DNA from: Antedon bifida | Taxonomy: Eukaryota; Echinodermata; Crinoidea; Comatulida; Antedonidae | Direction of reading: 5' to 3' | DNA: 64,000 bases | Assembly: GCA_963402885.1 (NCBI GenBank) | Contig: OY727102.1 | Span: 19,282,001 to 19,346,000 of the forward strand | In this document: positions 2,820-39,400 of the stretch, one piece after another | Numbering within the stretch: the first letter of the stretch is position 1 | Layout: every line of letters starts with the position of its first letter | Translations under genes and position numbers: made by a program | Notes under the pieces: model-generated | Seen by the model: only the letters and a program-made list of their open reading frames with translations | What the model was told of the DNA's origin: nothing | Database searches by the model: none

Positions 2820-3960
2820 TCATCTGAATTTTAATTTCAGAAAAAAATATATAATTCTCGTTACGTTTAGAAGAGAATTCATATCTCATCGTAGTTTGGT
2901 ATGCCGTGCGTTGTTATGCAAATGAGTTTGTGCAGGTGTAGTGGGGAAGACGGTCAACACGCCACACTGTTGAATGTTGATGTTGTTGATCTTTACATTA
3001 TAAGATTATTCAAATCATGTAGGTTCCGGGCGGGAACCTACCCAGTCTTTTAGTTTGCAAAGGAAATTTCGAAAAGAACTCAATATGAAAAGAAGCCCAC
3101 CCAAGAGTACTAAAAATGAAGGAGCACATGGGCTTCTTTTCAAGGTTTTATTGCAGTCTATTTAATGGAAAATGCCATGCAACTTTGTTTCTGATTTTAA
3201 AAAAGGTCCACTTGTTTAGACCTGACATTTACAACCCTCAAAATATCTCACTTTCAAAATCAAAGAAAAACAATATTTATTTTCAATTCCAAAAAAAAAA
3301 AAAATATCCGTAGAGGTTCGAACCCAATGCTGAGAGCACTTAAACCTGAGCATTACCCGTTAGGCCACAAAGTAGTACATGACTGAATAGCTGATAATAG
3401 TCTATTTATACGTGTATTACGTAATTCATCATTACGTCATAAATAACATATTAACCTTGTTAAAACCAAATGACCAGTTAGCTCAGGCGATTGAGCGTCG
3501 TGTTTCGATTCCCACGCTGGTCGGTGGAATAGAGTTAAAGGTATGCGACCAACTGTGTTTGGGGTTCACAGAATTTACGTCCCCCTTTCCACCACACATC
3601 TTGAGAAGGCACTAGCAATGCATCTGGTGAAGATGTGGTGGGAACTACCCCAAGGCTGTGGCAGGGCCTTAGTGCTGAGGAGGCAGGGAGAGCACATTTT
3701 TTAAAACTTTTTTTTGGCTTTCGCTACATGGTATTTGATCTCGTAATTTTATGTTTAGCGCCCTCAATTTTAATATAAAAAAGGAATTAATTATCTTCGT
3801 TACGTGTTTAGGAAAGAATGTCTCACCGTAGTTTGGTATGCCGTTTGTTGTTATGCAAATCAGTTTGTGCAGGTGTATTGGGACGGTACTGTTAGTCATT
3901 CGCGGTCAACACGGCACACAGTTAAATTTTGCTGATCTACGTTTTAGACTACCAGTCACC
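2820..3960. mobile_element. Composite repeat, old copy of the module duplicated at 24-27 kb
   Basis: The block carries two copies (about 2850-2960 and 3770-3915) of a module containing GTTTGGTATGCCGT, the octamer ATGCAAAT and GTGCAGGTGTA, flanking a tRNA-headed Pol III-like unit (3285-3712). The same order of parts occurs twice inside the foldback element at 24-27.4 kb. This copy is more diverged, so it is probably older. No protein-coding part is seen. Confidence 0.6.
3285..3712. ncRNA. Bidirectional tRNA-derived Pol III-like unit, degenerate copy
   Basis: On the minus strand a tRNA-like segment with B box GGTTCGAAC precedes a run of T (A-run on the plus strand at 3291-3303). On the plus strand a second tRNA-like head starts near 3470 with D arm GCTC/GAGC and B-box-like TTTCGATTCCC, but its anticodon arm is deleted compared with the copies at 24419 and 26189. 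The plus unit runs through a CCACCACAC / GTGGTGG hairpin region and ends in T-runs near 3700-3715. The tRNA-like parts suggest a SINE; the deletion makes this copy probably inactive. Confidence 0.45.
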
Positions 3961-3996: not shown

Positions 3997-5594
3997 TTAA
4001 AGGGGGGTTCCGGGTTTAAAATGAATAGTAAAAAATGTAAAATATATTTGTTTGTCTCTTGAACGGTAAAAGTTTCAATTTGTATAAGCGCCCAGTGAAG
4101 CAGAACGAAGGCTGTGAAATGAGGCCAGATTACAAGTCGATATGACACTGTGTTACAGAATAGGAAATTCGTGAAATGGTCAATCTTCCGACGACTCGTT
4201 ATCATTAACCATATCAATTACTTTTGTAAAATTATACTTATCTGATGTAATTTTAGTCGGTCTTCCCATTTATAAAGTCAATTTTCTATGAAAATTCATC
4301 AAAACAGTGAAAAATTAGATATGTTTGCACTTTACGTTTGCCGATTTTCGCACTGACTTAGGGAAAGTCTTCAAAATCAATGAAGCGTAACGTATACATT
4401 CCTGTAGCTGAGCGAGCGAGGAGAGCGAGACGATGATACACGTGCTCTCTCTCATGCCTGGCATCGTCACGTGATAAGTAGATACAGTATACAATACCAA
4501 ACTGGTCGGGTCGAGTATACCCCGTCTATAATCACAACATGAACGATGTACAGTATTTGATCGAAGGTCGACTCGACCTACCGGAATGGTATCGATAATA
4601 TAGCTCGAATGAGAGAGTTGGAATATTTTGCTAATTTTAACAAGTGTAGCCTATAGTAAAAGGCCTGGTAGTATCAATTCGCAGGGTCTACTACACTAGC
4701 TAGCTCAATTTTAACTGGGCCGGATCGGCTAGGTCTCCTTCCTACTACCTGGTCTACTTGCTTGATGCAGTATCCGCTTTTTTGGAGAGTAAACTGGGCT
4801 TATTCTAGGCCTACTTAGACGATCGGGACACCATACGTGCGGACGGCGATCGGACCTTGTTTTGCCTCAATATTTACAGCCGATTTTGTAGAATGTTTTA
4901 GGTTTAGATTGTTTAGGAGTTTGGTTGATAAGATGGGTTTGGAATCCACTGAGTTTTGTTATTTATGGGCCAATCGTTTAGTAGTAGGCTAGCTAGGCCC
5001 ATGATGGGCCCCAATGTTTTAACGTAGCCATCGTGGCATGGAATCCCTAGTCAGAATGGCTCTCACTCATGAAAAAAAAATGATTTAGGCTAGGCCTAGC
5101 CTAGTACGCGATAATACGATCTGTACAGTACTATTCGAGGTATAAAAATAGTATATAATTTATGACTACGTAATCTGTACTAAATTTTGTATTTCATTAA
5201 ATGTCAAATAAATATATGCTACTACTGTTATTAATACACTTTAGGCCTAGCTTAGAAAATCTACAAAAAAATGTATTTCACAATGATCGGGTGGTCGTCG
5301 TTTGACAGGGGGAGAGAGATGTAAATTAAACACAAACACAACGTACATGACGTCGCGAGTTTGGAATCCACTGATGACGTGACTTTGTGAATATCTTATG
5401 AATATTAATGAGCTTCCCTAAGCTGCTGAAAAACAGACTTTCCATGAATTTACCCTAAAATGTATATGAAATTTAATTTTTTTAATTTCTCGTTATTACT
5501 TCTTTATTCTGACATGTCTATATTGTTATAATATTTTTTATTTAATAAATAAACGATATTTAAAAGCAATTTTAAACCCAGAATCCCCCTTTAA
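3997..5594. mobile_element. TTAA-bounded nonautonomous DNA transposon, copy 1 (1.6 kb)
   Basis: The left end TTAAAGGGGGGTTCCGGG and the right end CCCAGAATCCCCCTTTAA are imperfect inverted repeats of about 25 bp, and TTAA stands at both edges. A second full-length copy in the same orientation lies at 47634-49275 and is nearly identical over most of its length. TTAA target duplication is the signature of piggyBac-type transposases. No transposase open frame is present; the short open frames shared by the two copies look incidental. The right edge is 214 bp before the first hexosaminidase ATG. Confidence 0.7.
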
Positions 5595-7909: not shown

Positions 7910-10462
7910 ATATCATACATCATCATTATCACCATCATACATCATCATCATCACCATCATACATCATCACCATTATACATCATCACCATCATCATATATC
8001 ATACATCATCATCATCACCATCATACATCATCATCATCACCATCATACATCATCATCATCTTAAATTACAACTAACTATTAAATCAAACAAACAATATTG
8101 TAGCCTTACAGTAATTGTCTTAATATCCATTGTGATTTGTACAAAATCATTTCGATCAAATGATTAAGATATAATTTTTGGGGTGTTTTTCAGGATGCTA
8201 TGGTGTACAACAAATTCAATGTTTTTCATTGGCATATTGTAGATGATCAGTCATTTCCTTATGAGAGTTCAAAGTATCCACAACTTAGCAATCAGGTAAG
8301 TAAATGGAATGTAAATGGAGGAATAACCTGCGACTTGTAGCCTACTGGGCTGAATTGTGCACAGCTGTGGACGACACATACCACAACTTTCTTCTCCCCT
8401 AAGGGTCCTTTCATGTCGAGTGCTGTCACAAAACGGCGCCTGTTCGTCTTTCCACAACGACAGGGGCTAAATGGACCAGTACACCGGGGTAATCCTCTAC
8501 TCTTCTGAAAGATGTACTGCTTCAATTGGAGCCCTGCAATTAACATGAATTAACTACTAATATTAATTAGAATGTGAGTGTTGTTTATTCAAAACTCATT
8601 AGGCTGATGCTGGCTGTCTTGCAATTATTGTATGTGATAAATGATCTCAATATTTAATTTCTAATCTAGGGTGCATTTAATCAACGACATACATACACGC
8701 AAGATCAGGTATCCTTAGTGATCAGCTATGCGAGAGAACGAGGAATTCGCGTAGTACCGGAGTATGACACTCCTGGACATTCCCAGTCATGGGGGTCAAT
8801 CAACGACCTTCTGACTCCGTGCTACAAGGACGGTAAAGCAACCGGCTCATTTGGTCCAATCAATCCAATCCTAAATTCTACTTACAATTTCTTGAAAGAT
8901 TTTTTCAGTGAAGTTGTTGCGAAATACCCAGATCATTACATACACATGGGTGGAGATGAAGTCAGTTTTGATTGCTGGTATTGTATTCTTTATGTTTTTT
9001 TTTATTTCTCAATAATAGATAATACATAAAAAAAAATACAAGATGTATAAAAATACTGGGAAGTGTCATTTGATTAGAGATGAATTCTGCATTTAATACA
9101 TTGTTGATATGGTGACAATTTGATGAGAAGTTTGTTTTACCTAAAGCTCTGTCTACACTTAGATCAAACTAATTTGAGATTGTGATGTGCTCAAATATGA
9201 TAGTGATATGCCCATATATGGGCACATCATACTGATATATCATTGTGTTTAAACAGGAAGAGTAACCCAGACATCACTACATTCATGAAAGAACAAAAGT
9301 TTGGTGATGACTATGCCAAACTGGAAGAGTATTACCTGCAGAGGTTATTGGATATCATGAGTGACCTGAAGGCTGACTATATCATTTGGCAGGAGGTCAT
9401 AGACAATGGGGTCAAAGTAAGGAATCAATATATAGTACTTTACTCCTCTATACTACAATATTACATATCTTAAACTCTGTTTACACTATCAAATTTATAA
9501 TGGATCGCTTTATATTGTAGGTCAGAAATGATACAGTTGTAGAAGTCTGGAAAGGCGGCTATGTTCAAGAGATGTCAAAGGTCACAAAACAAGGGTACAG
9601 AACAATTCTGTCATCCCCTTGGTATTTGAATTATGTGTCTAACCCATATAACCAAGACTGGAAGACTTATTATATAATTGAACCACAGGATTTTACAGGT
9701 AAAATTCAAGATCTATTACAAATCGCCATCTCAGCATATATAATCTAATATTAATTTTTAGGTTAATTTTTGTTTTGCCATTCCATTCATTTCCACTCAT
9801 TATGTTTTTTTATGTCTTGTTTCCTGTTTTTTGTTTTCATAAACATATATTTATAATAAAAGTTGTATATTTAAATTGTTTTATCAGGGACTGCCGAACA
9901 GAAAGCTCTTGTAATAGGTGGAGAAGCTTGCATGTGGGGCGAATATGTAGACTCTGTCAACCTTATTCAACGGTTCTGGTAAGTTATAGGATATGTGTAG
10001 GATATTTTGTTCTTCGGTGGAACTCTTTAAAACTTTGGACTGCAAAACATTCATCTAATCCTAGGAACATACTACTGTATGTATCAATAATTAACCAGTA
10101 TGTATGTTTATGCTTTTTTATAGGCCTAGAGCAAGTGCTGTTGGAGAAAGATTGTGGAGCTCAAAAAGTGTCAATGATGTACCTGCAGCAGAAAGTAGAC
10201 TGGCTGAGCACAGATGTAGAATGCTTAGGTAGGAAAGTTTAAAGCCTGTTTATACTATGGTTTATAATGACAGTGTGAAACTAACTTATTTTCCATTGTT
10301 TTTTATGTAATTTATTTTATAGCATATGAAGATAATTTCTCATTTTTGACTTTATATTCTTCAACCTCTTTTTTCTGAGGGAAATGGTAATTTTATTTTT
10401 GTTGTTTTTGTAGGAGAGGAATACAAGCTGAGCCTGTAACAGGTCCTGGGTATTGTCCATAG
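5809..10462 (+). CDS. Beta-N-acetylhexosaminidase (GH20), HEXB-like, 12 exons, 572 aa
   Basis: Exons: 5809-6101, 6509-6717, 7131-7196, 7307-7353, 7521-7631, 8194-8295, 8670-8977, 9257-9416, 9521-9698, 9888-9978, 10124-10228, 10414-10462. All junctions are GT-AG, phases match, and the frame stays open to TAG at 10460. The product should remove terminal beta-linked GlcNAc/GalNAc in lysosomes or a secretory compartment. Residues 1-20 ([20 protein letters not shown]) are a signal peptide; an Ala/Gly-rich linker (about 53-65) precedes the N-terminal domain, which begins near SPWPLP (76). Catalytic-domain motifs: [10 protein letters not shown] (Arg230), [11 protein letters not shown] (254-264), EYDTPGH (307-313), HMGGDE with the catalytic Asp372-Glu373, SSPWYLNY (463-470), WGEYVD (508-513). 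The family is usually about 530-560 aa; the extra length is the N-terminal linker. The end at GPGYCP resembles mammalian beta subunits, but subunit orthology is inferred. Introns carry MITEs and an ATC microsatellite. Confidence 0.93.
6836..6999. mobile_element. Palindromic MITE family A, copy in intron 2
   Basis: The copy begins TAAGCTCTGTCTACACTATC and ends in the inverted form GATAGTGTAGACAAGGCTTTA. The interior repeats AAATATGGTAGTGATATG and contains the self-complementary CCATATATGGGCACATCAC region. TA at both ends suggests a TA target site (Tc1/mariner-type). At least eight copies or fragments occur in the window. Confidence 0.8.
7424..7486. repeat. 20 bp minisatellite, 3 copies, intron 4
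   Basis: Three successive units of the type CTGGGTATACTCCCAGGGAC lie between exons 4 and 5. Each unit is partly self-complementary (CTGGG/CCCAG). Confidence 0.75.
7644..8060. repeat. Interrupted (ATC)n microsatellite filling intron 5
   Basis: About 415 bp of ATC triplets with regular ACC and ATA interruptions, producing a higher-order pattern. It begins 12 bp after the exon 5 splice donor. The frame of exon 5 stays open through it as a His/Ile/Ser-rich string, but the splice sites on both sides are good and exon 6 continues the enzyme, so it is intronic. Confidence 0.95.
8310..8545. other. GC-richer unclassified block in intron 6
   Basis: The base composition is clearly richer in G+C than the flanking intron, and overlapping open frames exist on the minus strand. 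It may be a degraded retroelement piece. Nothing in it matches the GH20 protein and no second copy is seen in this window. Confidence 0.3.
9141..9245. mobile_element. MITE family A fragment, intron 7
   Basis: The left arm (TAAAGCTCTGTCTACACTTA) and the CCATATATGGGCACATCA centre are present, while the right arm is missing. The fragment stops about 12 bp before the exon 8 start at 9257. A shorter left-arm remnant (ACTCTGTTTACACTATCAAA) lies at about 9474-9495, just before exon 9 at 9521. Confidence 0.65.
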
Positions 10463-18600: not shown

Positions 18601-19084
18601 AAATATATCACAATCAGAGAGCTATATATCCAATACCAAATTGGCGAGTAAATCATGTTTTAAATTTATACGCTCTTCCACAAGGTCAATTGTTAGTTAT
18701 ACATACAGACTATATTAAAACAATGATTTTGAACACGTAGGGCATTTCTTTGAATTCCTTCCTATCGTCGTTTTGTGGTAATTTACAGTTTTTTTTATGT
18801 TTAACAAACGTACATAATCAATTGCGTCTGCATCGTGGTAGACTACAACTTCCGGTAGTGACGTAATCAGCACATTTTTGGTAATAAAACTTTTTCACTA
18901 AGCTAGGGAATCCTCTAATATCAATATTCATTAGGCCGTACTTTAGTTAGCCAATCAAAATAAACGTATAAACAATTTTGCGGTGATGTTAAAAAATACT
19001 TTGAGACTATTTGAGGTGTTGGTACAGTTACCCAGTTTTATTCTTAGTTCAGTCAGTCCCAACTAAGACTATGGTACAAATTAA

Positions 19085-20610
19085 ACCATCTGGTTACAGT
19101 TAAACACAATGATAAAGAATAGGAATTTAATATAATATGATAAATGACATTCACATAGCAATTTATCACTGGGTTTTACTATAACCAATTTGGGTAGAGT
19201 AAAACACAATGATAAAGAATAGGAAACATTTAACAATATGATAAATTACATTTACATAGCAATTTATCACTGTGTTTTACTATAACCAATTTGGTTATAG
19301 TAAAACACAATGATAAAGAATAGGAAACATTTAACAATATGATAAATTACATTTACATAGCAATTTATCACTGTGTTTTACTATAACCAATTTGGTTATA
19401 GTAAAACACAATGATAAAAAATAGGAAACATTTAACAATATGATAAATTACATTTACATAGCAATTTATCACTGTGTTTTACTATAACCAATTTGGTTAG
19501 AGTAAAACACAATGATAAAGAATTGGAATTTAATAATATGATATATGACATTTACATAGCAATTTAGCACAGTGTTTCACTATATAACCATATAAATAAT
19601 AGGAAACATTTAATAATATGATAAATGACATTTACATAGCAATTTATCACTGTGTTTTACTATATAACCAATTTGGTTAGAGTAAAACACAATGATAAAG
19701 AATAGGAAACATTTACCGTATTAATATGATAAATGACATTTACATAGCAATTTAGCACTGTGTTTTACTATAACCAATTTGGTTAGAGTGAAACACAATG
19801 ATACAGAATAGGAAACATTTAATATGATAAATGACATTTACATAGCAATTTATCACTGTGTTTTACTATATAACCAATTTGGTTAGAGTAAAACACAATG
19901 ATAAAGAATAGGAAACATTTAATATGATAAATGACATTTACATAGCAATTCATCACTGTGCTTTACTATAACCAATTTGGTTAGAGTGAAACACAATGAT
20001 AAAGAATAGGAAACATTTAATATGATAAATGACATTTACATAGCAATTTATCATTGTGCTTTACTATAACCAATTTGGTTAGAGTAAAACACAATGATAA
20101 CGAATAGGAAACATTTAATATGATAAATGACATTTACATAGCAATTTTAGCAATGTGTTTTACTATAACCTATTTGGTTACGGTTAAACACAATGATAAA
20201 GAATAGGAAACATTTAATAATTTGATAAATGACATTTACATAGCAATTTATCACTGTGTTTTACTATAAGCAATTTAGTTAGAGTAAAACACAATGATAA
20301 AGAATAGGAAACATTTAATAATTTGATAAATGACATTTACATAGCAATTTATCACTGTGTTTTACTATAACCAATTTGGTTAGAGTAAAACACAATGATA
20401 ACGAATAGGAAACATTTATTAATATGATAAATGACATTTACATAGCAATTTATCACTGTGTTTTACTATAACCTATTTGGTTACGGTTAAACACAATGAT
20501 AAAGAATATGAAACATTTAATAATTTGATAAATGACATTTACATGGCAATTTATCACTGTGTTTTACTATAACCAATTTGGTTAGAGTAAAACACAATGA
20601 TGATGAAACA
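19085..20610. repeat. Left satellite array, about 101 bp unit, about 15 copies
   Basis: Each unit contains AACACAATGATAAAGAATAGG, then GACATTTACATAGCAATTTA, then TCACTGTGTTTTACTATAAC. At unit junctions lies a perfect palindrome with 18 bp arms around one T (19272-19308, arm GTGTTTTACTATAACCAA). Some units have the exact palindrome; others have GGTTAGAG in place of GGTTATAG. Confidence 0.95.
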
Positions 20611-20639
20611 TTTATTATATGATGTTATTTACATAGCAA

Positions 20640-21650
20640 AATATTATATTAAGTATATCTTATTATCTAAACGTTATGATAAAGAATAGGATACATATAA
20701 TGTAATATAATAAATACAAGTTACATAGCTTATCATTGTGTTTTACAGAACCAATTTGGTTACACAGTTAAACACAATGATAAAGAATAGATACTGTTTT
20801 AGGTTATATAACCCTAACCCTAGTTTGCAGCGACATAATAAATTCATCGCGAAAAAATACTTATCGTATTCAGAAACTTTTGAAATTTGGTAGATATGTT
20901 CAATAGGTTCTATAAAACATACAAAAAGTACAACTTTCACAAAAATTCGTGATTTTAATAATTTGCATTTCTAAAAATGTACACTTATGAAATACCATAC
21001 ATTCCCAACACATTTTTACTTCATTGGTGATTCCCAGAAATCAAAATAAAACGAATATGATATTTGTTTTTACATTATAGATTTAAGAACCTATATTGAA
21101 CATATCTACCAAATTTCAAACGTTTTTCAAGACGATACATATTTTTAGCGATGAATGTGATGGCTTCAAACTAGGGTTAGGGTTAAATAACCTAACAGTT
21201 CTATTCTTTATCACTGTGTTTAACTTTTAACCAAATTGGTTATAGTAAAACACAATGATAAACTTATCTGTAAATTTTGTTTTTCATATTACATAAAATG
21301 TTTGATATTCTTTATAACATGTTTATAATAGGATGTATTTAATTAGATATTTTAGGCCTACTATTAATGACGTAGAAATGCACACTACATCTGAAGTAAC
21401 TTTCTACTTCATTGGCGATTTTTACAAAAGAAAAAGACTATTTTTGTTATATATATAGAGCAACTGATATAAAATGTCTTGTATGATTTTTATCTCATTT
21501 CAATGACATTTTATACTACAATTCAAATGAAAAAGCATCACAAAAAATACGTCTGGTATTCAAAACGTTTTTAAACTCGGTAAACATGTTCTATGGGTTA
21601 CTCTTTACACAGAAAAAATGATGATATTCTAATCGTTTTATTGTATACTT
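20640..21650. other. Centre of foldback element 1
   Basis: Two inverted segments (about 20801-20960 and 21070-21190) flank a short spacer near 21.0 kb. The inner arms carry AACCCTAACCCTAG (20810-20823) and its complement CTAGGGTTAGGGTT (21171-21184), i.e. two telomere-like repeats per arm. No long open frame or transposase motif was found; a minus-strand frame at 20743-20940 is not recognisable. Confidence 0.7.
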
Positions 21651-21659
21651 TTGGTTCCC

Positions 21660-23530
21660 ATTTGTTATCATTGTGTGTAACTGTAACCAAATTGGTTATA
21701 GAGTAAAACACAGTGATGAATTGCTATGTAAATGTCATTTATCATATTATTAAATGTTTCCTATTCTTTATCATTGTGTTTTACTCTAACCAAATTGGTT
21801 ATAGTAAAACACAGTGATAAATTGCTATGTAAATGTCATTTATCAAATTATCAAATGTTTCCTATTCTTTATCATTTTGTGTAACTGTAACCAAATTGGT
21901 TATATAGTAAAACACAGTGCTAAATTGCTATGTAAATGTCATATATCATATTATTAAATGTTTCCTATTCTTTATCATTGTGTTTCACTCTAACCAAATT
22001 AGTTATAGTAAAACACAGTGATAAATTGCTATGTAAATGTCATTTATCATATTATCAAATGTTTCCTATTCGTTATCATTTTGTTTTACTCTAACCAAAT
22101 TGGTTATAGTAAAACACAGTGATAAATTGCTATGTAAATGTCATTTATCATATTATTAAATGTTTCCTATTCTGTATCATTGTGTTTAACCGTAACCAAA
22201 TTAGTTATAGTAAAACACAGTGATGAATTGCTATGTAAATGTCATTTATCAAATTATTAAATGTTTCCTATTCTTTATTATTGTGTTTAACCGTAACTAA
22301 ATAGGTTATAGTAAAACACAGTGCTAAATTGCTATGTAAATGTCATTTATCAAATTATTAAATGTTTCCTATTCTTTATTATTGTGTTTAACCGTAACCA
22401 AATTGGTTATATAGTAAAACACAGTGATAAATTGCTATGTAAATGTCATTTATCAAATTATTAAATGTTTCCTATTCTTTATCATTGTGTTTCACTCTAA
22501 CCAAATTGGTTATAGTAAAACACAATGATAAATTGCTATGTAAATGTCATTTATCAAATTATCAAATGTTTCTTATTCTTTATCATTGTGTGTAACTGTA
22601 ACCAAATTGGTTATATAGTAAAACACAATGATAAATTGCTATGTAAATGTCATATATCATATTAATAAATGTTTCCTATTCTTTATCATTGTGTTTTACT
22701 CTAACCAAATTGGTTATAGTAAAACACAGTGCTAAATTGCTATGTAAATGTCATTTATCATATTATTAAATGTTTCCTATTCTTTATAATTGTGTTTAAC
22801 TGTAACCAAATTAGTTATAGTAAAACACAGTGCTAAATTGATATGTAAATGTCATTTATCATATTATTAAATGTTTCCTATTCTTTATCATTGTGTTTAA
22901 CCGTAACCAAATTGGTTATAGTAAAACACAGTGATGAATTGCTATGTAAATGTCATTTATCAAATTATCAAATGTTTCCTATTCATTATCATTTTGTTTT
23001 ACTCTAACCAAATTGGTTATATAGTAAAACACAGTGCTAAATTGCTATGTAAATGTCATTTATCATATTATTAAATGTTTCCTATTCTTTATCATTGTGT
23101 TTAACCGTAACCAAATTAGTTATAGTAAAACATAGTGATGAATTGCTATGTAAATGTCATTTATCAAATTATTAAATGTTTCCTATTCGTTATCATTGTG
23201 TTTAACCGTAACCAAATTGGTTATGTAGTAAAACACAGTGCTAAATTGCTATGTAAATGTCATTTATCATATTATTAAATGTTTCCTATTCTTTATCATT
23301 GTGTTTAACCGTAACCAAATAGGTTATAGTAAAACACAGTGATGAATTGCTATGTAAATGTCATTTATCATATTATTAAATGTTTCCTATTCTTTATCAT
23401 TGTGTTTTTTTACTCTAACCAAATTGGTTATAGTAAAACACAGTGCTAAATTGCTATGTAAATGTCATTTATCATATTATTAAATGTTTCCTATTATTTA
23501 TATGGTTATATAGTGAAACACTGTGCTAAA
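21660..23530. repeat. Right satellite array (inverted), about 101 bp unit, about 18 copies
   Basis: The reverse complement of the left array unit: CCTATTCTTTATCATTGTGT, then TAACCAAATTGGTTATAG and AATTGCTATGTAAATGTCA. Units diverge by a few percent, mainly at CTGTAACC/CCGTAACC/CTCTAACC and at one- or two-base insertions (GGTTATATAG). The last unit decays at about 23.5 kb. Confidence 0.95.
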
Positions 23531-23874
23531 TTGCTATTGTATTATGGACGAGTTCTGAGAAGAAGTATTTAAAGCTACAACCAATCAGAACAGTGTTAAT
23601 CAATATAATCCATGGCTACAACCAATCAGAAACGTCCAAATCGCAAAAACCCCTAGGCTAACAGCAATTATTGGCCCGAGTAGCCTTTTAAACCAGACGT
23701 TGCGAGGTTTAAAAAGTAAAACATGATTTACTCGCCAGTTTGGTATAGTTTATATACCTGAATCAGAGAGGTATATTCAGAGCGTCATTTCGACGATCGA
23801 GCATTCTCTACTTCTACGGAGCGCCATTTATGCCTTTATTTACTTCCGAAATAGAAATAGTACTACGGTAACTG

Positions 23875-24140
23875 GTTCAGTGGACCAAATTTAGCACCAG
23901 TGGAGCACAGTGATATAAAATAGAAATAAGTCACTAATTTTAATATCTTTTCGTATGTTAAAACACTGTGCTCAAGTGGACCCAATTTGGAGCCAGTGGA
24001 GCACAGTGATATATAAATAGAAACAAGTCATTGAATGTTAATATCTTTTCGTATGCTAATACACTGTGCTCAAGTGGACCCAACTTGGAGCCAGTGGAGC
24101 ACAGTGATATAAAATAGAAATAAGTCACTGAAATTTAATA
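23875..24140. repeat. Satellite B, left array, about 105 bp unit
   Basis: About 2.5 units: CAAGTGGACCCAATTTGGAG, CCAGTGGAGCACAGTGATAT, AAAATAGAAATAAGTCACTG, TTAATATCTTTTCGTATG, ACACTGTGCTC. The junction GAGCACAGTG / CACTGTGCTC forms a palindrome around CCAATTTGG, the same centre as in foldback element 1. A further partial copy is at about 25780-25920. Confidence 0.85.
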
Positions 24141-24257
24141 TCTTTTCGTATTAAGCATATTTGAATACCTACCGGTATGGTACCATACATGTTCGACAAT
24201 ACAGTGTCACATATCTCTATCTAAAAAAAAAAACAATATTAAAAAAAAAAAAAATAT

Positions 24258-24321
24258 CTGTCGAGGTTCGAACCTCAGCCGATAGCACTCAAAACTGAGC
24301 ATTACCCGTTACGCCACCAAG
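24258..24321 (-). ncRNA. Degenerate tRNA-like Pol III head (minus), copy 1
   Basis: Read on the minus strand: A-box-like TGGCGTAACGGGTAATGC, a shortened anticodon arm (CTCA/TGAG) and B box GGTTCGAACC, followed within a few bases by a run of 14 T (24241-24254 on the plus strand are A). That is the layout of a Pol III gene with its terminator. It is divergent from the plus-strand unit that starts at 24419. Confidence 0.4.
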
Positions 24322-24418
24322 TACATGACTGAAAAGCTGATAATAGTCTATTTATACGTGTATTACGTAATTGATCATTACGTCATAAATATCCTATTAA
24401 ACTTGCTAAAACCAAAAT

Positions 24419-24680
24419 GATCAGTTAGCTCAGTCGTCTGAGCGTCGTGTTAACAACACGTATGTCGTGGGTTCGATTCCCACGCTGGTCGGTGGAATAG
24501 AGTTAAAGGCATGCGGCCACTGTGTTTGGGGTTCACAGATCATACGTCCCCCTTTCCACCACACATCATGAGGCGACAACATCAATGCATCTGGTGATGT
24601 GGTGGAAACGACCCCAAAAGGCTGTGGCAGGGCCTTAGTGCTGAGGCAGGGAGAGCACATTTACCATCTTTTTTTTTTTG
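24419..24680 (+). ncRNA. tRNA-headed Pol III-like RNA (SINE type), copy 1
   Basis: Bases 24419-24491 fold as a full cloverleaf: acceptor GATCAGT/GCTGGTC (7 pairs, two G-T), D arm GCTC/GAGC, anticodon loop TTAACAA (AAC), T arm GTGGG-TTCGATT-CCCAC. It then continues about 180 bases as a SINE body with a hairpin (TTTCCACCACACATCA at 24553-24568 against TGATGTGGTGGAAA ending at 24607) and ends in T11 at about 24670. The head does not look like a genuine animal tRNA-Val, so it is probably a SINE rather than a tRNA gene. Confidence 0.5.
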
Positions 24681-26027
24681 GCTCTCGCAAACTGCTTTGG
24701 TGGTTTAAATTTTATGTTTAGCGCCCTCAATTTATTTTAATGTTAAAAAAAGGGAACTAATTCTCTTCGTTACGTGTTTAGACGAGAATTAATTTTATCT
24801 CATCGTAGTTTGGTATGCCATGCGTTTGTTATGCAAATGAGTGTGCACATGTGCTGTGGGAAAGACGGTATTGTTAGTCATTCGCGATCAACACACAACA
24901 CTGTTCAATTTTAATTTTGTTAATCTTTTACATTAGAATTGTAATTCTACCGTTACACATTATAGTGTACTGTACTTTTAAATATCCGTTTCATGCAAGA
25001 TATTGTATTGTAGGCCTACTAATATGTTGTGAATAAAAGTTTATGGTAGAATAAATAAATAAATATGTTTTAAGCAAATCTTCGAAATTGAAGCATAATT
25101 ATGAAGTCGAGTTTTTTAAAACCCAACCTAAAATTCGCATCTGGATAGTTGAAATTTAACATTTTAATTATCAAAGATGATATGATAATTCTAATTGTTT
25201 TCTAAATTATAGAAATATTAAAATTAGTAAGTAGGTTTCTGTGTGCTAGCTCTGTTTGTATTTCATAATTTTGTTTTGTTGAATTACCGTCACGGCCGCG
25301 TGCATTGCATGTCTTACACTTGGGAAACAATCACCATTGTATGGCTGGTTCTGAAAACTTGTATATTTCGTTTCATAATTTCCGGGGACTAAGCTTTCAT
25401 TCTTAGCTCTGCCCCAACCATGGTGAGCTTAACTGGAGACTTAATATTTAATTTCATATTTCAATAAATATTTTTTCAGCCCCAATCATGGTGGGGAAGT
25501 GAAGACTCTTATATATCATGTTTCAAAATACTATAGGTGTCATTTCTGGGGACCTTGTAGCTATTTTTAAACAGTTTGGTAAGCCCTGCGTTGTTATGCA
25601 AATGAGTTTGTGCAGGTGTAATGGGAAAGATAGTATTGTTAGTCCTACGCGGTGAACACGCCACAAAATAAAATTTAAATATTAAATTTTGATTTTGTTA
25701 AACTTTATTAGAAATTCAAATCATGTAAAGATACAATTTTCCGGGCGGGAATCTAGAAACTCCCCTCCTTTAGTTTAGTGATATAAAATAGAAATAAGTC
25801 ACTGAATTTTAATATCTTTTCGTATGTTAATACACACTGTGCTCAAGTGGATTCAATTTGGAGCCAGGGGAGCACAGTGATATAAAATAGAAATAAGTCA
25901 CTGAATTTTAATATCTTTTCGTATTAAGCATATTTGAATACCTACCGGTATGGTACCATACATGTTCGACAATACAGTGTCACATATCTCTATTAAAAAA
26001 AAAAAACAATATTAAAAAAAAAAATAT

Positions 26028-26091
26028 CTGTCGAGGTTCGAACCTCAGCCGATAGCACTCAAAACTGAGCATTACCCGTTACGCCACCAAG
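26028..26091 (-). ncRNA. Degenerate tRNA-like Pol III head (minus), copy 2
   Basis: Same sequence as at 24258-24321, with the A-box- and B-box-like motifs intact; the T-run after it on the minus strand is shorter here (about 10). Confidence 0.4.
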
Positions 26092-26188
26092 TACATGACT
26101 GAAAAGCTGATAATAGTCTATTTATACGTGTATTACGTAATTGATCATTACGTCATAAATATCCTATTAAACTTGCTAAAACCAAAAT

Positions 26189-26450
26189 GATCAGTTAGCT
26201 CAGTCGTCTGAGCGTCGTGTTAACAACACGTATGTCGTGGGTTCGATTCCCACGCTGGTCGGTGGAATAGAGTTAAAGGCATGCGGCCACTGTGTTTGGG
26301 GTTCACAGATCATACGTCCCCCTTTCCACCACACATCATGAGGCGACAACATCAATGCATCTGGTGATGTGGTGGAAACGACCCCAAAAGGCTGTGGCAG
26401 GGCCTTAGTGCTGAGGCAGGGAGAGCACATTTACCATCTTTTTTTTTTTG
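26189..26450 (+). ncRNA. tRNA-headed Pol III-like RNA (SINE type), copy 2
   Basis: Base-for-base the same cloverleaf (26189-26261), hairpin body and T-run terminator as the copy at 24419-24680. Confidence 0.5.
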
Positions 26451-26797
26451 GCTCTCGCAAACTGCTATGGTGGTTTAAATTTTATGTTTAGCGCCCTCAA
26501 TTTATTTTAATTCTCTTCGTTACGTGTTTAGACGAGAATTAATTTTATCTCATCGTAGTTTGGTATGCCGTGCGTTTGTTATGCAAATGAGTGTGCACAT
26601 GTGCTGTGGGAAAGACGGTATTGTTAGTTATTCGCGATCAACACACAACACTGTTCAATTTTTATTTTGTTAATCTTTTACATTAGAATTGTAATTCTAC
26701 CGTTACACATTATAGTGTTTTTTTAAATATCTGTTTCATGCAAGATAATTGTATTGTAGGCCTACTAATATGTTGTGAATAACAGTTTATGGCAGAA

Positions 26798-26828
<31 letters not shown>

Positions 26829-27554
26829 TAAGCAGATCTTCGAAATTGAAGCATATATGAAGTCGAGTTTTTTTTTAAACCCAACCTAAAATTCGCATCT
26901 GGATAGTTGAAATTTAACATTATAATTATCAAAGGTGATATGATAAATCTAATTGTTTTCTAAATTATAGAAATATTAAAATTAGTAAGTAGGCTTTTGT
27001 GTGCTAGCTCTGTTTGTATTTCATAATTTTGTTTTGTTGAATTACCGTCACGGCCGCGTGCATTGCATGTCTCACACTTCAACAAACACCATTGTATGGC
27101 TGGTCCTGAAGACTTTTATATTTCGTTTCATAATTTGCGGGGAATAAGCTTTCATTCTTAGCTCTGCCCCAACCATGGTGAGCTTAACTGGAGACTTAAT
27201 ATTTAATTTCATATTTCAATAAATATTTTTTTCAAAATTGTCTTTGCTCAGCCCCAATCATGGTGGGGTAGTGAAGACTCTTATTATATCATGTTTCAAA
27301 ATACTATAGGTGTCATTTCTAGGGACCTTGTAGCTATTTTAAACAGTTTGGTAAACCCTGCGTTGTTATGCAAATGAGTTTGTGCAGGTGTAATGGGGAA
27401 GATGGTATTGTTAGTCCTACGCTGTGAACACAACACAAAATTAAAAGATGGTATTGCTAGTCATTCGCGGTCAACACGCCACACTACGGTTAAATTTTGA
27501 TTTTGTTAATCAATGTTGCTACATTGGTAGCGAAATGTCCGATTCATGCAATAT

Positions 27555-28475
27555 ATTGTATTGTAATATCAAGTTTCAAGTTTATTGTTTCACAAAATAC
27601 AATACAATATGATAATACAGAAACATTAATTAATAAATACAATTGTGTGAGGAGGACACATTAAGCCAAGGCTTTAAGTTTGGTCCTCCAGATAAGTAAA
27701 TATAGGCCTATATTTAATTTAAGTGAGAGAAAAAAAACACTTCTTTCTTTCGTCAAATTGACAAATAAAATGAAACAAAAAGGCACAAAAAAGGGAAAAA
27801 AGAACAGTCTTAAGGCAATTGTGAATTACTAATGTTCTAAATAGTTTGAAATAAGTAGCCTATTTGTTTGTATTTTGTTTTAAATGAATTTTTGATGGGT
27901 ATTGCTTTTAGATTGAGCGGTAAGTTGTTCCATATATACGGCCGGTCCATTGTAAATAAAAGATGTTCTTCTAAGTAATATGGTATGCTTTTCGTATATT
28001 AGATTTTTTGCAGTTGAAGATCTGGTGTTGTAAGAATGATTAAAATTTTGAAAATAGGTGTAAAATTATAAAAAAATATCGATAGTATGGTGCTTGTTAT
28101 TCTTTCATATAAGTGGAGAAGTGCGAGATCTGTAGAATGTGATTTTCGAAAGCCATATTGATTGTTATATAGAATATTATGTTTTGTGAAAAAAGAAATT
28201 AGACGAGCATATAGCTTTTCAAATATTTTTGAAAAACATGAAAGTAAAGCAATCGGTCTATAATTTGAAAATTTATGGGGGTCATCTTTTTTAAAAATAG
28301 GCACAAGTTTGGCAACTTTTAGCGCATTAGGAAATATCCCATATTTAAATGAAATGTTAAAGATGTGACATAAGGTTTTAGAAATAAACGGAGAAATTTG
28401 TTTAATAACGTTAGAATGTATTTCATCTACACCAGGACTTTTATTATTTTTTAGCTCTTCGGTTGCATTAATTTA
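27555..28475 (-). pseudogene. Internally deleted non-LTR retrotransposon (CR1/L2-like)
   Basis: On the minus strand, from about 28475 to 28060, a reverse transcriptase fragment is readable: KSPGVDEIHSNVIK, then VAKLVPIFKKDDPHKFSNYR, RPIALLSCFSKIFEK and YGFRKSHSTDLALLHLYE. After a break the C-terminal part reappears (about 27980-27840: DRPYIWNNLPLNLKA), then a 3' UTR ending AATAAACTTGAAACTTGATA near 27560. The palm domain with the catalytic YxDD motif is missing, so the copy is dead. It lies inside foldback element 2. Confidence 0.8.
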
Positions 28476-28960
28476 ATAATAATAAATAATATATGTTATG
28501 AATAAACGTTTATGGTGAGTTGGTGTGGGCCGCACCGTCCCAGAATAAACATCATTTAAACAGATAGTTTGTCTCCGATGGTTTTTGTATGAGGTTAACG
28601 GAGAGTGAAATAACACCAGATGCCGATTTCTAGACCAATTTCGAAACTTAGACTAATTCCGCCGCCGGGCTAGGCCTTAGTCAGATACGAACCCCACCTA
28701 AAAGTTTGAAATTTTACATTATCATAATTATCATAGGTGATTATGTATAGTAATAGTATAAGTATAAGTGCAATTCTGGACTCTATTTTCATTATTAGCT
28801 CTGCCCCAACCATGGTGGGCTAGTACTGGAGAATTAATATTTAATTTCATATTTCAATGAATAGGTGCACTTTCCGGTGACACTAAATAATTATTCATCT
28901 TAGACAAACGCAAGTTATTAAAATCACTGATGGCTTGAAACGAATTTTTATTTTGCATTA
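28470..28960. repeat. Third, diverged partial copy of the duplicated module
   Basis: It shares with the 1.77 kb units the GTTATGAATAAACGTTTATGG-like segment, a segment near 28690-28740 (CACCTAAAAG..TTGAAATTTTACATT) and CTCTGCCCCAACCATGGTG. It is older or more rearranged than the two tandem copies. Confidence 0.6.
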
Positions 28961-28974
28961 CGGATGCAGTAACC

Positions 28975-29185
28975 GATATTGAACATATACCACTGGGGCC
29001 AAATTGGGTCCACTTGAGCCCAGTGTATTAACATACGAAAAGATATTAAAATTCAGTGACTTTATTTCTATTTTATATCATCACTGTGCTCCACTGGCGT
29101 AGTGTATTAACATACAGAACAATATATATATGACTTCTTTCCATTTTATATGCTATCCTGGTGCTAAATTGGGTCCACTTGAGCT
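28975..29185. repeat. Satellite B, right (inverted) array
   Basis: Inverted relative to 23875-24140: CAAATTGGGTCCACTTGAG, CATACGAAAAGATATTAAA, ATCACTGTGCTCCACTGG. About two degraded units are left, and they lead directly into the inverted terminal segment. Confidence 0.8.
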
Positions 29186-29839
29186 TACCGTAGTACTATT
29201 TCTATTATTGAAGTTAATAAAGGCATAAATGGCGCTCCGTAGAGAAGTAGTCGAGAATGCTCCATAAGTTTGTTTTGATTATGCATGACATGTGGTTGAC
29301 CTTTAATTTTTGGTAGTCTCTATCCAGCTACTTTATTTAGAAAAACAAACTTTTAAAACTGTCTTTTTTTTTAAATAAGGTAAACGTAACAAGTTTAAGT
29401 TAAATACTAGATTATAATATACAAAGTAATTCTTGTTTATCAGCAAACAGAACATAATTACAACATTTTAAATACATAATAAGCATTTTGATTTTGTGAT
29501 TGCGTCTGGATTTGCAATTAGGAATCATTGACCTTTTCATATTGGTATGGCGACAACAAGCGAAAAGTTTGCAGAGTTTAAAGAATTGTACTGTAATAGG
29601 TAAATTTGTAGAAATTAGATGTTGATTGCTAGACATTTGAATACGTGATTATAAACATACTGTTGTACTCATAGTTAATATAAGTTATTTGTATAAATGT
29701 TTTTAGAAGTGTTTATGGTGAGATGGTGAGACACTGTTTTTAGAGAGGTCAAGTCACAACATTAACAGTGTGGTTCCCTGCTGGACTTTGATATAGGCTA
29801 GTCTGCACTGTGATTTGTCTGGTATTGTTTCTTGGGAGT

Positions 29840-36349: not shown

Positions 36350-36421
36350 AAATTAAGAAAGAGCTACTATAACAGAAGAGCATTTATCCTGAATTCTAAA
36401 GTCAGACATTCTGGTGAGGTT

Positions 36422-39400
36422 GTGGAAGCATTACCAGATAAAGTCAAAGTGTCACCAGATAAAGTCAAAGCGTCACCAGATAAAATGGAAAGTCTTTCAC
36501 ATAAAGTCAATTCTACTCAAGAAAAGTTGGAATCCACTCAAGTTGACATAAAAAGGATCCCAATGGAAAGTAACCATATTTCAACTGAGATTGGTCCTCC
36601 ATTAACAGAAATTAATAAAAGCACTAAAAGAGAAGTAAACCCAAGAACTCGTCAAGACTTGACTACCAGTCCTTTACCACCTAGCAGTAAGCAACCACAT
36701 GGTCGTACTTTGCAAGAAAAGAAGCATGAGTTTCTCTGCTGGGGATGTGGAGAGTTTGGTCAGAATGGCAGGGAAGATGGCAAGGATATAGGCATTGGTG
36801 CTACTCTAGCAAACTTTTCTTATAATGGATGTTATGATAAAGTGAAGACGATGGCTTGTGGATCAAGTCATACAGTTGTGGTAACAGGTAAGGAATTATT
36901 TTTTAAATTTAGGAATGGACTTCAAAAAGAGGTGTTGTAGGTTAAGTGTTGAATTGTAGGTTGAATGTGGAGTTGTAGGTTGAGTATGGAGTTGTAGGTT
37001 GAATGTGGAGTTGTAGGTTGAGTGTGGAGTTGTAGGTTGAATGTGGAGTTGTAGGTTGAATGTGGAGTTGTAGGTTGAGTGTGGAGTTGTAGGTTTAGAG
37101 TTGTGACTTGGAGTAGAGTTGTCATTTTTAGTGGAGTAAACTTGATGGTTATGTTGAGCCTACAATTTGCAAGGTCCTGAGTTGAATATTTTCTCATGAC
37201 AAAACAATTTCCAAGTCTGTTTCATTTCTGGGTTTGCTGTTTTTTTACTTGATTTTCCACATGTGAATATATTTACAATAACAATTAAAGCGTGGTTCCC
37301 ACTAGCGACGCAACGCAAGGACGTAACGCAACGCAAGTGAATTGACCAATCACAAGCGATGGCTTATTCGCTTTTGATTGCTAACTGTCTATAACTTCGC
37401 TTGTCATTGGTTAAAACGCTTGCGTTGCGTTTACGTCCTTGCGTTACGTTCTAGTGGGAACCAAGCTTAAGTAAGCTCATAACTTAAAATGAATGGCAAA
37501 TCATTAAAAAAATAAGAAAAAATAACTAATTAAAAAATACATAAACAAATAATTTGTCAGTTCTTCATTTGTATAGTTTGTAGTAAAACATAACTGCCGT
37601 ATTTATTTATCTTTTTTCTCCAATTATTATAGTGCTTTTAAATTAATGTTACTGGTTTTTCTATTAAATCCTGTTTTGAAAAACAAAATCATGAACTAAA
37701 CTATATGTGAATTGTATATTTTTTTCAGAGTCTAATCAAGTATTTGCCTGGGGTAACGGCAGTAGTGGTCAGTAAGTAGATATTTACAATCAGGAAGTTA
37801 TTTAAAGAAATGTTCTGCAGCAATCTAAAAAAATTCACTTTAAAGTCATTTAGAATTGATCTTCTAAGAATATAAAATTTTATGAAACAAGCTTGTAAAA
37901 ATATATCTGTTCACTCTGCTGAAAATGTCATTATTTATTTTATGTACTGAATTATTGTATTGAATAATTTAGTACATAAAATAATTATTAAATATTTATA
38001 TATTATTATTTTTAAATAATTTAGTACATAAATTATTGTTTTCCAAAGACTATATAAACCAATCTCCTAAAACACAAACAACACTGTACTTTGAAAGTCA
38101 ATAATATAATGCTGTCTATTTTGTGCCTAGCTTACCTGGATAAACCGACAATAGCCCATGCTCTCCAAAGTATTAACTAGTATGGGGTAGATTTTTACTC
38201 ACTAATTACCCCAACCAGATATCTAAAGATTTTGTTTTGCATGGTAATACTTTACTACATATTTTAGTCAGAATTGTGTTAAGTGTAAAAACACATTTCA
38301 TTATGATTTATATACAGTATGTATGTGTGCTAAATTTCAATTCGTTTTAGCATTCGTAATGTAACAAAATCTAAAGAGGTCATTAGTGTAATAATCGTTC
38401 AAGTCATTGAATATTAACGTAAAATTGATTATTGCCGAAAAGTACAAAGGAGATTTCAGAGATTGCGTCAGTAGCATACGTCATTATGTTTGATTTGATT
38501 GACCTCATTTTTCAATAAATAATGTAAATTGATTTTCTGTATTAAACAATTTATTTCTATTATAAAGTTTACAAAGAAAATTTAGTTTTAGCTTCCAATT
38601 TTAGGTTATGCTTTTTTAAATCAATTTAGTAGTACACTATATGTAAGTAAGTAAAGGTATAATTGTGCACAGATGTTCTCCAGGTAACTGTTATGCAAAT
38701 TAGGCTTCTTGCCTATAGCATGCTTGGTTTAGTCAAGAGAACAATAATAGATTTATTAAAGCATATAACATTAAGTTGGAGTTGAGGTGTAGCTCACCTG
38801 ATATGCAAATTAGGCTTCTTGCCTAGCATGCTTGGTTTAGTCAAGAGAACAATAATAGATTTATTGAAGCATATAACATTAAGTTGAAGTTGAGTTGTAG
38901 CTCACCTGGTGCTCCAGGTAAACTGTTATGCAAATTAGGCTTGCCCAGGTTTAGTCAGTATACTGTTGGGCTTGGTAGTGTGAAGTACTACTGTATGTAG
39001 GCTTTGCTAAGCATAGGCTGGTGCTGTTAGTTGCGTTCAATGAGTCTCAAGTTTAAATAAACAGTTTATATGCTTCTTTAATTTCAGACTTGGCTGTGGG
39101 GATAAGGGGTCCTGTGCTAGCCCACAAGAAATCAAACTAGAGGAGGAACATGTGATAACTAGCCTAGCATGTGGCAGTCGACATACTGTGCTCGTCACTC
39201 AAGAAGGAAAATGCTTCGGTTTTGGCAACAACTTTTATGCTCAGCTTGGTTATAATTTCCGAATGAAAAATTACAAAGAAAACCAGGTAAGCCAAATAAT
39301 GAACTGCAAAAAATGGGTATAAAACTCCATCAGCAGGAACTTGGCCTAAATTAATAACATATTGTATGAAATGAATATAGTATTCCTGTCACTATTGCTT

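What the first reader, a model, noticed from the sequence alone, without database searches (positions are those of the whole stretch)
24241..24680. Bidirectional, tRNA-headed Pol III-like element with terminators at both ends
From a single 440 bp unit, a minus tRNA-like head runs into T14 and a plus tRNA-like head with a perfect-looking cloverleaf runs through a 14-16 bp hairpin body into T11. The two heads are different tRNA-like sequences. The same layout is kept in three copies (3285-3712, 24241-24680, 26015-26450). SINEs normally have one head; a divergent pair is unusual and could make two small RNAs.
Basis: partly seen in the sequence, partly recalled or inferred. Interest (0 to 1): 0.7.

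Follow-up and report, generated by a model that had tools for sequence, protein, structure and literature searches.

The report
Jumping DNA carrying paired RNA genes
In what looks like an echinoderm genome, a short stretch that appears able to start two small RNAs in opposite directions turns out to be cargo inside a jumping DNA element that has copied it hundreds of times, which is an unusual combination but has not been shown to be switched on.

Summary
The 440-bp unit is real, but not a free-standing SINE. It is a well-conserved part of a 1.77-kb repeat inside a TIR transposon without long reading frames (about 194-bp TIRs; perfect 7-bp target duplications in 6 of 7 module-bearing copies read at both ends), holding one to seven units.

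The plus head keeps a tRNA cloverleaf and runs through a conserved body to a T-run (71 of 71 distinct copies). The minus head keeps A/B boxes (66 of 71 each) and a T-run, but does not score as a tRNA.

The spacer between them holds minus-strand TATAAATA (69 of 71), TTACGTAA, TTACGTCA and plus-strand ATAAATA (67 of 71), each TATA-like box about 30 nt from its head. The module is 91-93% identical between families whose remaining unit is 71-74% identical.

Of 69 fetched plus bodies, 69 have the spacer and 68 a minus head; 59 of 127 minus heads lack a plus head. I read this as a divergent Pol III gene pair carried by a foldback-like transposon. Transcription is untested, body folding weakly supported, and gene conversion could explain the conservation. 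Mitochondrial COX1 fits the echinoderm/flatworm code.

The parts
23768..29263 (+). The host transposon copy in this window: left TIR at 23768 (GAGGTATATTCAGAGCGTCATT...), two full 1.77-kb units plus a partial one, an inserted reverse-transcriptase fragment, and the inner part of the right TIR ending about 29263 (outer ~33 bp missing)
   Evidence: (TIR match, 0 of 100 shuffles); complete relatives with both TIRs and 7-bp duplications
23768..23955 (+). Left terminal inverted repeat (length taken from complete relatives, about 185-194 bp)
24241..24254 (-). A14 on + strand = T14 terminator of the minus unit
   Evidence: T-run of at least 4 in 71 of 71 distinct copies
24255..24323 (-). Minus head: degenerate tRNA-like promoter; B-box core 24274-24265, A box 24316-24305
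   Evidence: loose box patterns in 66 of 71 copies each, stricter B-box pattern in 0 of 71 and stricter A-box pattern in 56 of 71; not a tRNA by covariance model
24349..24356 (-). TATAAATA on the minus strand, centred 29.5 nt upstream of tRNA position 1 of the minus head (24323)
   Evidence: 69 of 71 copies, 18 of 19 representatives; 19 TATAAATA on both strands of the 64-kb window
24363..24385 (.). TTACGTAA (24363-24370), TGATCA, TTACGTCA (24378-24385): adjacent bZIP (CRE/ATF-type) motifs; motif naming recalled
   Evidence: 60 and 64 of 71 copies, 13 and 14 of 19 representatives; dyad symmetry of 24347-24396 equalled by 24 of 1000 shuffles
24385..24391 (+). ATAAATA, TATA-like, centred about 31 nt upstream of plus tRNA position 1 (24419)
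   Evidence: 67 of 71 copies, 17 of 19 representatives
24418..24492 (+). Plus head: complete tRNA cloverleaf, anticodon AAC (GAC in several sister families); A box 24426-24436, B box 24470-24480
   Evidence: 34 matches of 31.2-54.0 bits in 17 of 20 loci, all on plus heads
24493..24668 (+). Body of the plus unit, GC about 0.54 in a 0.32 GC window, with a hairpin of about 16 bp
   Evidence: 93-98% identical between families whose remaining unit is 71-74% identical
24669..24679 (+). T11 terminator of the plus unit
   Evidence: T-run of at least 4 in 71 of 71 copies; internal TTTT in 3 of 71
26015..26450 (+). Second module copy, one tandem unit (1.77 kb) downstream
3291..3712 (+). Third module copy, diverged subfamily, plus head partly deleted; no TIR matched near it

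Best explanation
The 440-bp segment is a divergent pair of RNA polymerase III transcription units that share one central promoter. It is carried as cargo in the 1.77-kb repeats of a foldback-like TIR transposon that has no long reading frame of its own. Plus unit: TFIIIC reads the A and B boxes of an intact tRNA-like domain, helped by an upstream TATA-like box and bZIP-type sites, and Pol III makes a 250-260 nt RNA (tRNA domain plus conserved body) that ends in the T-run. Minus unit: the mirror-image TATA box with degenerate A and B boxes would give an RNA of about 75-85 nt. Copies multiply by transposition of the whole 3.5-14 kb element (cut-and-paste is inferred from TIRs and duplications) and by tandem duplication inside it, not by reverse transcription. 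Because the body downstream of the promoter is kept as well as the head, the RNA itself is probably what is selected; the tRNA domain could let tRNA-processing enzymes release or protect the body. Shown here: mobile element, module anatomy, linkage, conservation gradient, terminators. Inferred: transcription, processing, benefit to the element.
For: Element: six copies at different sites share exact ends, TIRs of about 194 bp 87-89% alike and perfect 7-bp duplications. There are 378 TIR matches genome-wide, reversed control 0. The longest stop-free frame in those six elements is 85-130 codons. Module: two-box pattern at 319 exact places, control 0; T-runs at both ends in 71 of 71 distinct copies, internal TTTT in the plus unit in 3 of 71; TATA-like boxes about 30 nt from their heads in 69 and 67 of 71. 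Conservation: module 0.91-0.93 identity against 0.71-0.74 for the rest of the unit in three cross-family comparisons; body 0.93-0.98. The plus body has its head and spacer in 69 of 69 fetched places and a minus head in 68. On contigs C1 and C7, 70 of 76 listed plus junctions are two-headed by motif. The minus unit has been tandemly multiplied with its TATA box, both boxes and T-run together.
Against: No RNA data of any kind. The minus head scores as no tRNA and is the least conserved part of the module (0.80-0.83). In 36 of 71 copies (7 of 19 representatives), the focal one included, an internal TTTT could stop the minus RNA early. Lack of internal TTTT in the plus unit is unremarkable for its composition (73% of 1000 shuffles also lack it). 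Body folding is weak (mean z -0.62) and covariation nearly absent (2 of 62 pairs). Other blocks of the 1.77-kb unit without Pol III features are also conserved (0.80-0.88 at 24801-24920, 25401-25520 and 25521-25776). Family A-C identity in the body (0.976) exceeds A-B (0.933) although the rest of the unit goes the other way (0.707 against 0.740), which hints at gene conversion. Two of eight elements read at both ends lack a 7-bp duplication: the seven-unit copy (5 matching letters) and a short module-less one in L048 (none).
Confidence: 0.55

Rival explanations
1. Passive hitchhikers: two tRNA-derived sequences (one a SINE-like head plus body, one a head only) landed side by side in an ancestral transposon long ago and are now inert passengers copied by it.
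For: The heads differ and neither has a clear parent among 18 recalled tRNAs (best 0.73 to tRNA-Ile for the window plus head, 0.66 for a minus head). The minus head is degenerate and also occurs without a plus head (59 of 127). T-runs are what old SINE ends can look like (recalled).
Against: The spacer between the heads is kept at 0.90-0.93 and holds TATA-like boxes at matching distances. The module is better conserved than most of its flanks. No copy with insertion duplications of its own was seen: all 69 fetched plus bodies carry the same upstream spacer and 66 the same downstream sequence.
Confidence: 0.25
2. Gene conversion, not selection, explains the conserved module: the GC-rich segment is a conversion hot spot that homogenises across families while flanks drift.
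For: Identity of families A, B and C is discordant between body and the rest of the unit; units sit in tandem arrays and in hundreds of places, which favours conversion.
Against: Conservation is uneven inside the module in a promoter-like way: the TATA region (24338-24367) averages 0.97-0.99 per ten letters while the minus B-box region averages 0.85. On the plus side the conserved block ends at the T-run.
Confidence: 0.2
3. DNA-level role only: TFIIIC/TFIIIB bound to the module act as a chromatin boundary that keeps the element open in distal and internal heterochromatin; RNA is a by-product.
For: Strong regional bias: 39 of 39 listed C1 junctions and 28 of 37 on C7 lie within 5 Mb of a contig end, zones that make up 30% and 27% of those contigs. 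tRNA genes as insulators are established (recalled).
Against: Would not require the 165-nt body, which is as well kept as the head.
Confidence: 0.15

Closest known systems
Galileo (P-superfamily foldback-like transposon of Drosophila; PMC3573991, abstract and passages seen)
   Same: Long inverted repeats with internal tandem repeats of varying number; 7-bp target duplications in most copies, with non-matching 7-bp flanks in chimeric copies (compare the seven-unit copy here)
   Different: No Pol III cargo was mentioned in the passages seen; here the large repeated unit is internal and carries tRNA-like heads; no P-type transposase was found near this TIR
Tetris foldback element of Drosophila virilis (PMC4079207, passages seen)
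   Same: Foldback element without conserved reading frames whose internal repeats grow into satellite-like arrays
   Different: 8-10 bp target duplications, about 220-bp repeats, no tRNA-like promoters mentioned in the passages seen
tRNA-derived SINEs, including HaSE2 with a mariner-derived 3' region (PMC3272025, passages seen)
   Same: tRNA-like head with A and B boxes, unrelated body
   Different: SINEs move alone by retroposition with their own duplications; here the unit moves inside a TIR element and there is a second, divergent head with a shared TATA-containing spacer
Hybrid (type 4) Pol III genes such as vault RNA, 7SL RNA and EBER genes (recalled, nothing read)
   Same: Internal boxes plus upstream TATA-like and ATF/CRE-type sites, T-run terminator
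   Different: Those are single-direction genes; here two units share one spacer and lie on a transposon
tRNA-headed hairpin RNAs (TMERs) of a murine gammaherpesvirus (recalled; search listing only)
   Same: tRNA-like domain followed by a hairpin and a T-run
   Different: Body hairpin here is weakly supported and there is no evidence of microRNA processing

Membership tests
tRNA-derived SINE | tRNA-like head with A and B boxes | tested here: met
tRNA-derived SINE | Independent retroposed copies with their own target duplications | tested here: not met
   0 of 69 fetched plus bodies lack the upstream spacer, 3 of 69 lack the usual downstream sequence (loci were chosen by similarity to the whole unit, a bias). 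40 of 40 zero-mismatch body matches on C1 lie beside a head, two-box or spacer match (coordinates). Duplications found belong to the TIR element. Diverged old copies could be missed by these patterns
tRNA-derived SINE | 3' tail shared with a partner LINE or poly(A) | not tested
   Unit ends in a T-run; no LINE tail comparison made
TIR DNA transposon (cut-and-paste) | Exact terminal inverted repeats | tested here: met
   About 194 bp, 87-89% alike, in 6 of 6 elements measured
TIR DNA transposon (cut-and-paste) | Constant-length target-site duplication | tested here: met
   7 bp in 6 of 8 elements read at both ends; the seven-unit copy in L041/L042 has 5 matching letters and a short module-less element in L048 none
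P superfamily (Galileo-like) | Moved by a P-type transposase bearing the same TIR | tested here: inconclusive
   58 matches to the P-type RNase H domain. Of the 36 on C1 and C7-C10, none lies within 20 kb of the 91 zero-mismatch TIR matches listed there. 22 P matches and most of the 378 TIR matches were not compared
Hybrid Pol III (type 4-like) gene | Internal A/B boxes plus upstream TATA at about -25 to -30 and T-run | tested here: met
   Sequence level only; minus-head boxes only by loose patterns
Hybrid Pol III (type 4-like) gene | Pol III transcription | not testable with these tools
   No RNA or ChIP data held
Functional tRNA gene | Cloverleaf followed closely by a terminator | tested here: not met
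   Cloverleaf yes, but in the focal copy the first TTTT is 177 nt past the tRNA end and a body follows the head in 68 of 68 fetched places

The most novel reading that the evidence does not exclude
A DNA transposon without long reading frames that carries a dedicated divergent Pol III gene pair with its own hybrid TATA/bZIP promoter, and whose tRNA-headed RNA is under selection and acts in trans for the element or has been taken over by the host, spread to more than 500 copies by transposition and tandem amplification.
Probability: 0.3. Interest if true: 0.75.

Novelty: new variant of a known kind. Interest (0 to 1): 0.57.

Why it matters
Small Pol III RNAs normally spread by retroposition (SINEs) or stay put. 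Here the same kind of gene seems to travel on a TIR DNA transposon and to multiply in tandem inside it. If transcribed, it would be a natural, repeatedly copied divergent Pol III promoter, of practical use and a way to ask whether transposons without proteins live on RNA instead. It also warns annotators that tRNA-headed repeats need not be SINEs, and that tRNA finders may call many false tRNA-Val genes here (two in this window).

Tried and rejected
Tunicate host: I first read the mitochondrial COX1 with the ascidian code (on the wrong strand) and took AGG=Gly as proof. Table 9 fits better: all four AAA codons of the stretch fall on positions that I recall as conserved Asn. The tunicate reading was dropped. 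The GH6 search was empty, but no control genome rang either. Table 9 also serves flatworms; 'echinoderm' rests on recalled COX1 features.

A functional tRNA-Val: rejected, because the terminator lies 177 nt past the tRNA end.

A microRNA-like body hairpin: weak. Mean z is -0.62 for the body and -1.44 for head plus body, with 7 of 17 copies below -2 for head plus body. The focal copy with its T-run had z -3.24 but -2.24 and -2.42 when cut before the T-run.

RNA covariation: 2 of 62 pairs with double changes; uninformative because the copies are too alike. For that alignment and the z-scores I used 17 of the 19 representatives and dropped L059_-_1067 and L037_-_1700 for large deletions.

P-type transposase as partner: matches exist but none was found near the TIR matches compared.

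Parent tRNA: no clear parent among 18 recalled sequences. The 'ancestral-like' plus head typed there had a wrong anticodon loop (sister families read TTGACAA), so that row should be ignored; the minus query there was typed after sister copies, not letter for letter from the window.

Literature on divergent Pol III pairs in DNA transposons: the searches listed no such case in the held library; I saw their listings and, for three papers, passages.

Full report
Observation. The sequence is as described at the coordinates given: A14 at 24241-24254, a minus-strand B-box core and A box, a spacer of about 93 nt, a plus-strand tRNA, a body and T11 at 24669-24679. ARAGORN and Rfam both call the plus head a tRNA (Val, anticodon AAC; 50.4 bits against a cut-off of 29). 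Neither calls the minus head one (Rfam up to E 5), and it folds no better than shuffles, so on that side only the promoter boxes are tRNA-like. The copy at 26015 is the same unit 1.77 kb downstream. The copy at 3285 is a diverged relative that has lost 21 nt of its plus head.

Host. The window lies in a 315.6-Mb genome. Its mitochondrial COX1 reads properly with the echinoderm/flatworm code: all four AAA codons fall at positions that I recall as conserved Asn, and AGR reads as Ser. Eleven large contigs make up 314.7 of 315.6 Mb (hand sum of lengths). Crinoids are recalled to have n = 11, whereas the one review I looked into gives 36-46 diploid chromosomes for most echinoderms (PMC3308324, passages). 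The species is not settled.

What carries it. Comparing the L045 copy with nine other fetched copies gave sharp common ends, and reading the ends gave the answer: GAGGTATATTCAGAGCGTCATT inverted at both ends with identical 7-letter flanks. Six elements of 3,457-5,363 bp, with one or two units each, have inverted repeats of about 194 bp, 87-89% alike, and perfect duplications AAGAAAC, AAAAAAG, GCAATGC, CCTGCTG, ACTTTTT and AATTTGG. Two further elements read at both ends do not: a 14.3-kb one with seven units has 5 matching flank letters, and a 1,043-bp module-less one in L048 has none. The genome holds 378 TIR matches within 2 mismatches, reversed control 0. The longest stop-free frame in the six elements is 85-130 codons, so they look non-autonomous. 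Further in, 98-bp tandem repeats lie in opposite orientation at the two ends, a foldback-like layout. In this window the element starts at 23768. It is interrupted by a reverse-transcriptase fragment (27999-28472, Pfam RVT_1 E 8.1e-6 but below its cut-off) and has lost the outer tip of its right repeat near 29263.

The unit inside. The 1.77-kb repeat has the order 98-bp repeats, minus head, spacer, plus head, body, then further blocks, three of them conserved. I extracted 101 plus-head places. Of these, 93 had full flanks, giving 71 distinct sequences, of which 19 differ from each other by more than 3%. T-runs of at least 4 end the plus unit in 71 of 71 and the minus unit in 71 of 71. An internal TTTT occurs in the plus unit in 3 of 71 and in the minus unit in 36 of 71, the focal copy among them. 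For the plus unit this is no test: 73% of shuffles of the focal copy lack TTTT too. A and B boxes by loose core patterns: plus 67 and 69, minus 66 and 66, all four together 56 of 71. With stricter patterns the minus A box matched 56 and the minus B box 0 of 71, because the last letter of that B-box consensus is not met.

The spacer. Letters 24338-24367 are as well kept as any part of the module (0.97-0.99 per ten letters, equalled by stretches of the body). There and just beyond lie TATAAATA on the minus strand (24356-24349; 69 of 71 copies), TTACGTAA (60), TGATCA, TTACGTCA (64), and ATAAATA on the plus strand (24385-24391; 67). The TATA-like boxes are centred 29.5 and 31 nt from tRNA position 1 of their own heads. 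TATAAATA occurs 19 times on both strands of the 64-kb window, so a hit within 3 letters of a fixed place on a fixed strand is about a one-in-a-thousand event by that rate. The region is roughly its own mirror image, though only moderately beyond chance (24 of 1000 shuffles). This is the layout of a two-way promoter. In the family with internal chromosome clusters, the minus unit with its TATA box, boxes and T-run is repeated on its own as 256-269 bp monomers (L040), which marks it as a self-contained unit.

Linkage. Among fetched loci, with overlaps removed, 69 of 69 plus bodies have a plus head, 69 the spacer, 68 a minus head and 66 the same downstream sequence. Of 127 minus heads, 68 have a plus head within 200 bp and 59 do not. 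These loci were found by similarity to the whole unit, so they are biased. The check without that bias is by pattern. Only about 100 places of each were listed. On C1 and C7, 36 of 39 and 34 of 37 listed junctions are two-headed by motif; the other 6 were not resolved. On C1, 40 of 40 zero-mismatch body matches lie beside a junction, two-box or spacer match.

Conservation. Between the window unit and three units of two other families, the module 24255-24657 is 0.930, 0.913 and 0.913 identical and the rest of the unit 0.707, 0.740 and 0.729, counting aligned letters only. The body is 0.976, 0.933 and 0.939, the plus head 0.959, 0.947 and 0.947, the spacer 0.925, 0.914 and 0.903, and the minus head 0.800, 0.829 and 0.829. 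Three other blocks of the unit are also kept at 0.80-0.88. A fourth comparison, with a close A-family unit, is uninformative (0.985 against 0.959). The plus head still scores as a tRNA in 17 of 20 loci tested (34 matches, 31.2-54.0 bits, none on a minus head).

How it most likely works. The simplest account of a kept tRNA head, kept body, kept T-run and kept TATA spacer is transcription by Pol III with selection on the RNA. Promoter function alone would not need the body. The minus unit looks weaker: it is the least conserved part, it has internal TTTT in half of the copies, and it makes a head-only RNA. Spread is by transposition and tandem growth. Gene conversion is the serious rival for the conservation, because families A and C agree better in the body than the rest of the unit would predict. 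No step of transcription or processing has been shown.

Known relatives. By structure the carrier resembles Galileo of the P superfamily (inverted repeats with internal tandem repeats, 7-bp duplications; PMC3573991 abstract and passages) and Tetris (PMC4079207 passages). Membership in the P superfamily is undecided: 58 P-type RNase H matches, of which the 36 on C1 and C7-C10 have no listed zero-mismatch TIR within 20 kb (91 TIR places compared). As a gene it resembles hybrid Pol III genes (recalled). It fails the SINE test of independent retroposed copies, as far as tested. The literature searches listed no divergent Pol III pair carried by a DNA transposon in the held open-licence library; subscription papers are mostly absent from it.

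Noticed in passing
window 19082-23501: A second foldback-like structure: two inverted arrays of 101-bp repeats (19082-20783 and 21665-23430, 87% over 1780 aligned letters), directly left of the transposon studied, with a repeat unit that resembles the 98-bp repeats in CCAATTTGG and CACAGTGATA motifs.
   Followed up: partly
L040 (C14:7473000-7482990): Tandem arrays of the minus unit alone, 256-269 bp monomers each with TATAAATA, A box, B box and T-run, between full units; similar short arrays in L053-L055.
   Followed up: partly
whole genome: Regional bias: 39 of 39 listed plus junctions on C1 and 28 of 37 on C7 lie within 5 Mb of a contig end; the remaining C7 ones lie at 18.1-22.9 Mb. Closer relatives of the diverged copy lie mostly at internal places such as C7 21.0-21.4, C8 25.9-26.4, C10 18.1-20.5, C14 7.5 and C16 9.9-10.2 Mb, possibly pericentromeric; C13 has at least two such places.
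   Followed up: partly
L048:3404-4446: A 1,043-bp element with both TIRs but no module and no matching flanks, a short relative of the transposon.
   Followed up: partly
window 24801-24920, 25401-25520, 25561-25650: Other conserved blocks of the 1.77-kb unit; the first and third share a segment with TTATGCAAATGAG (an octamer motif, recalled). Role unknown; might be transposase or POU-factor sites.
   Followed up: no
window 27999-28472 (-): Reverse-transcriptase-like open frame (RVT_1, E 8.1e-6, below the curated cut-off), probably a LINE fragment inserted in the transposon.
   Followed up: partly
window 8670-9029 (+): Open frame with a glycosyl hydrolase family 20 (hexosaminidase-type) catalytic domain, E 1.4e-25.
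   Followed up: partly
window 36350-36940 (+): Open frame with an RCC1-like stretch, E 1.5e-4, below the curated cut-off.
   Followed up: no
window 4315-4650 (-) and 47995-48330 (-): Two open frames with nearly the same protein stretch, so another dispersed repeat.
   Followed up: no
window 49990-50637: 41-bp tandem array; ARAGORN's tRNA-Asn(ATT) at 50621 overlaps its edge and is probably spurious.
   Followed up: no
G000 C16:12754035-12756825, C7:28406846-28410819, C1:32272284-32273110: Clusters of host tRNA-Lys genes, mostly about 140-152 bp apart.
   Followed up: no
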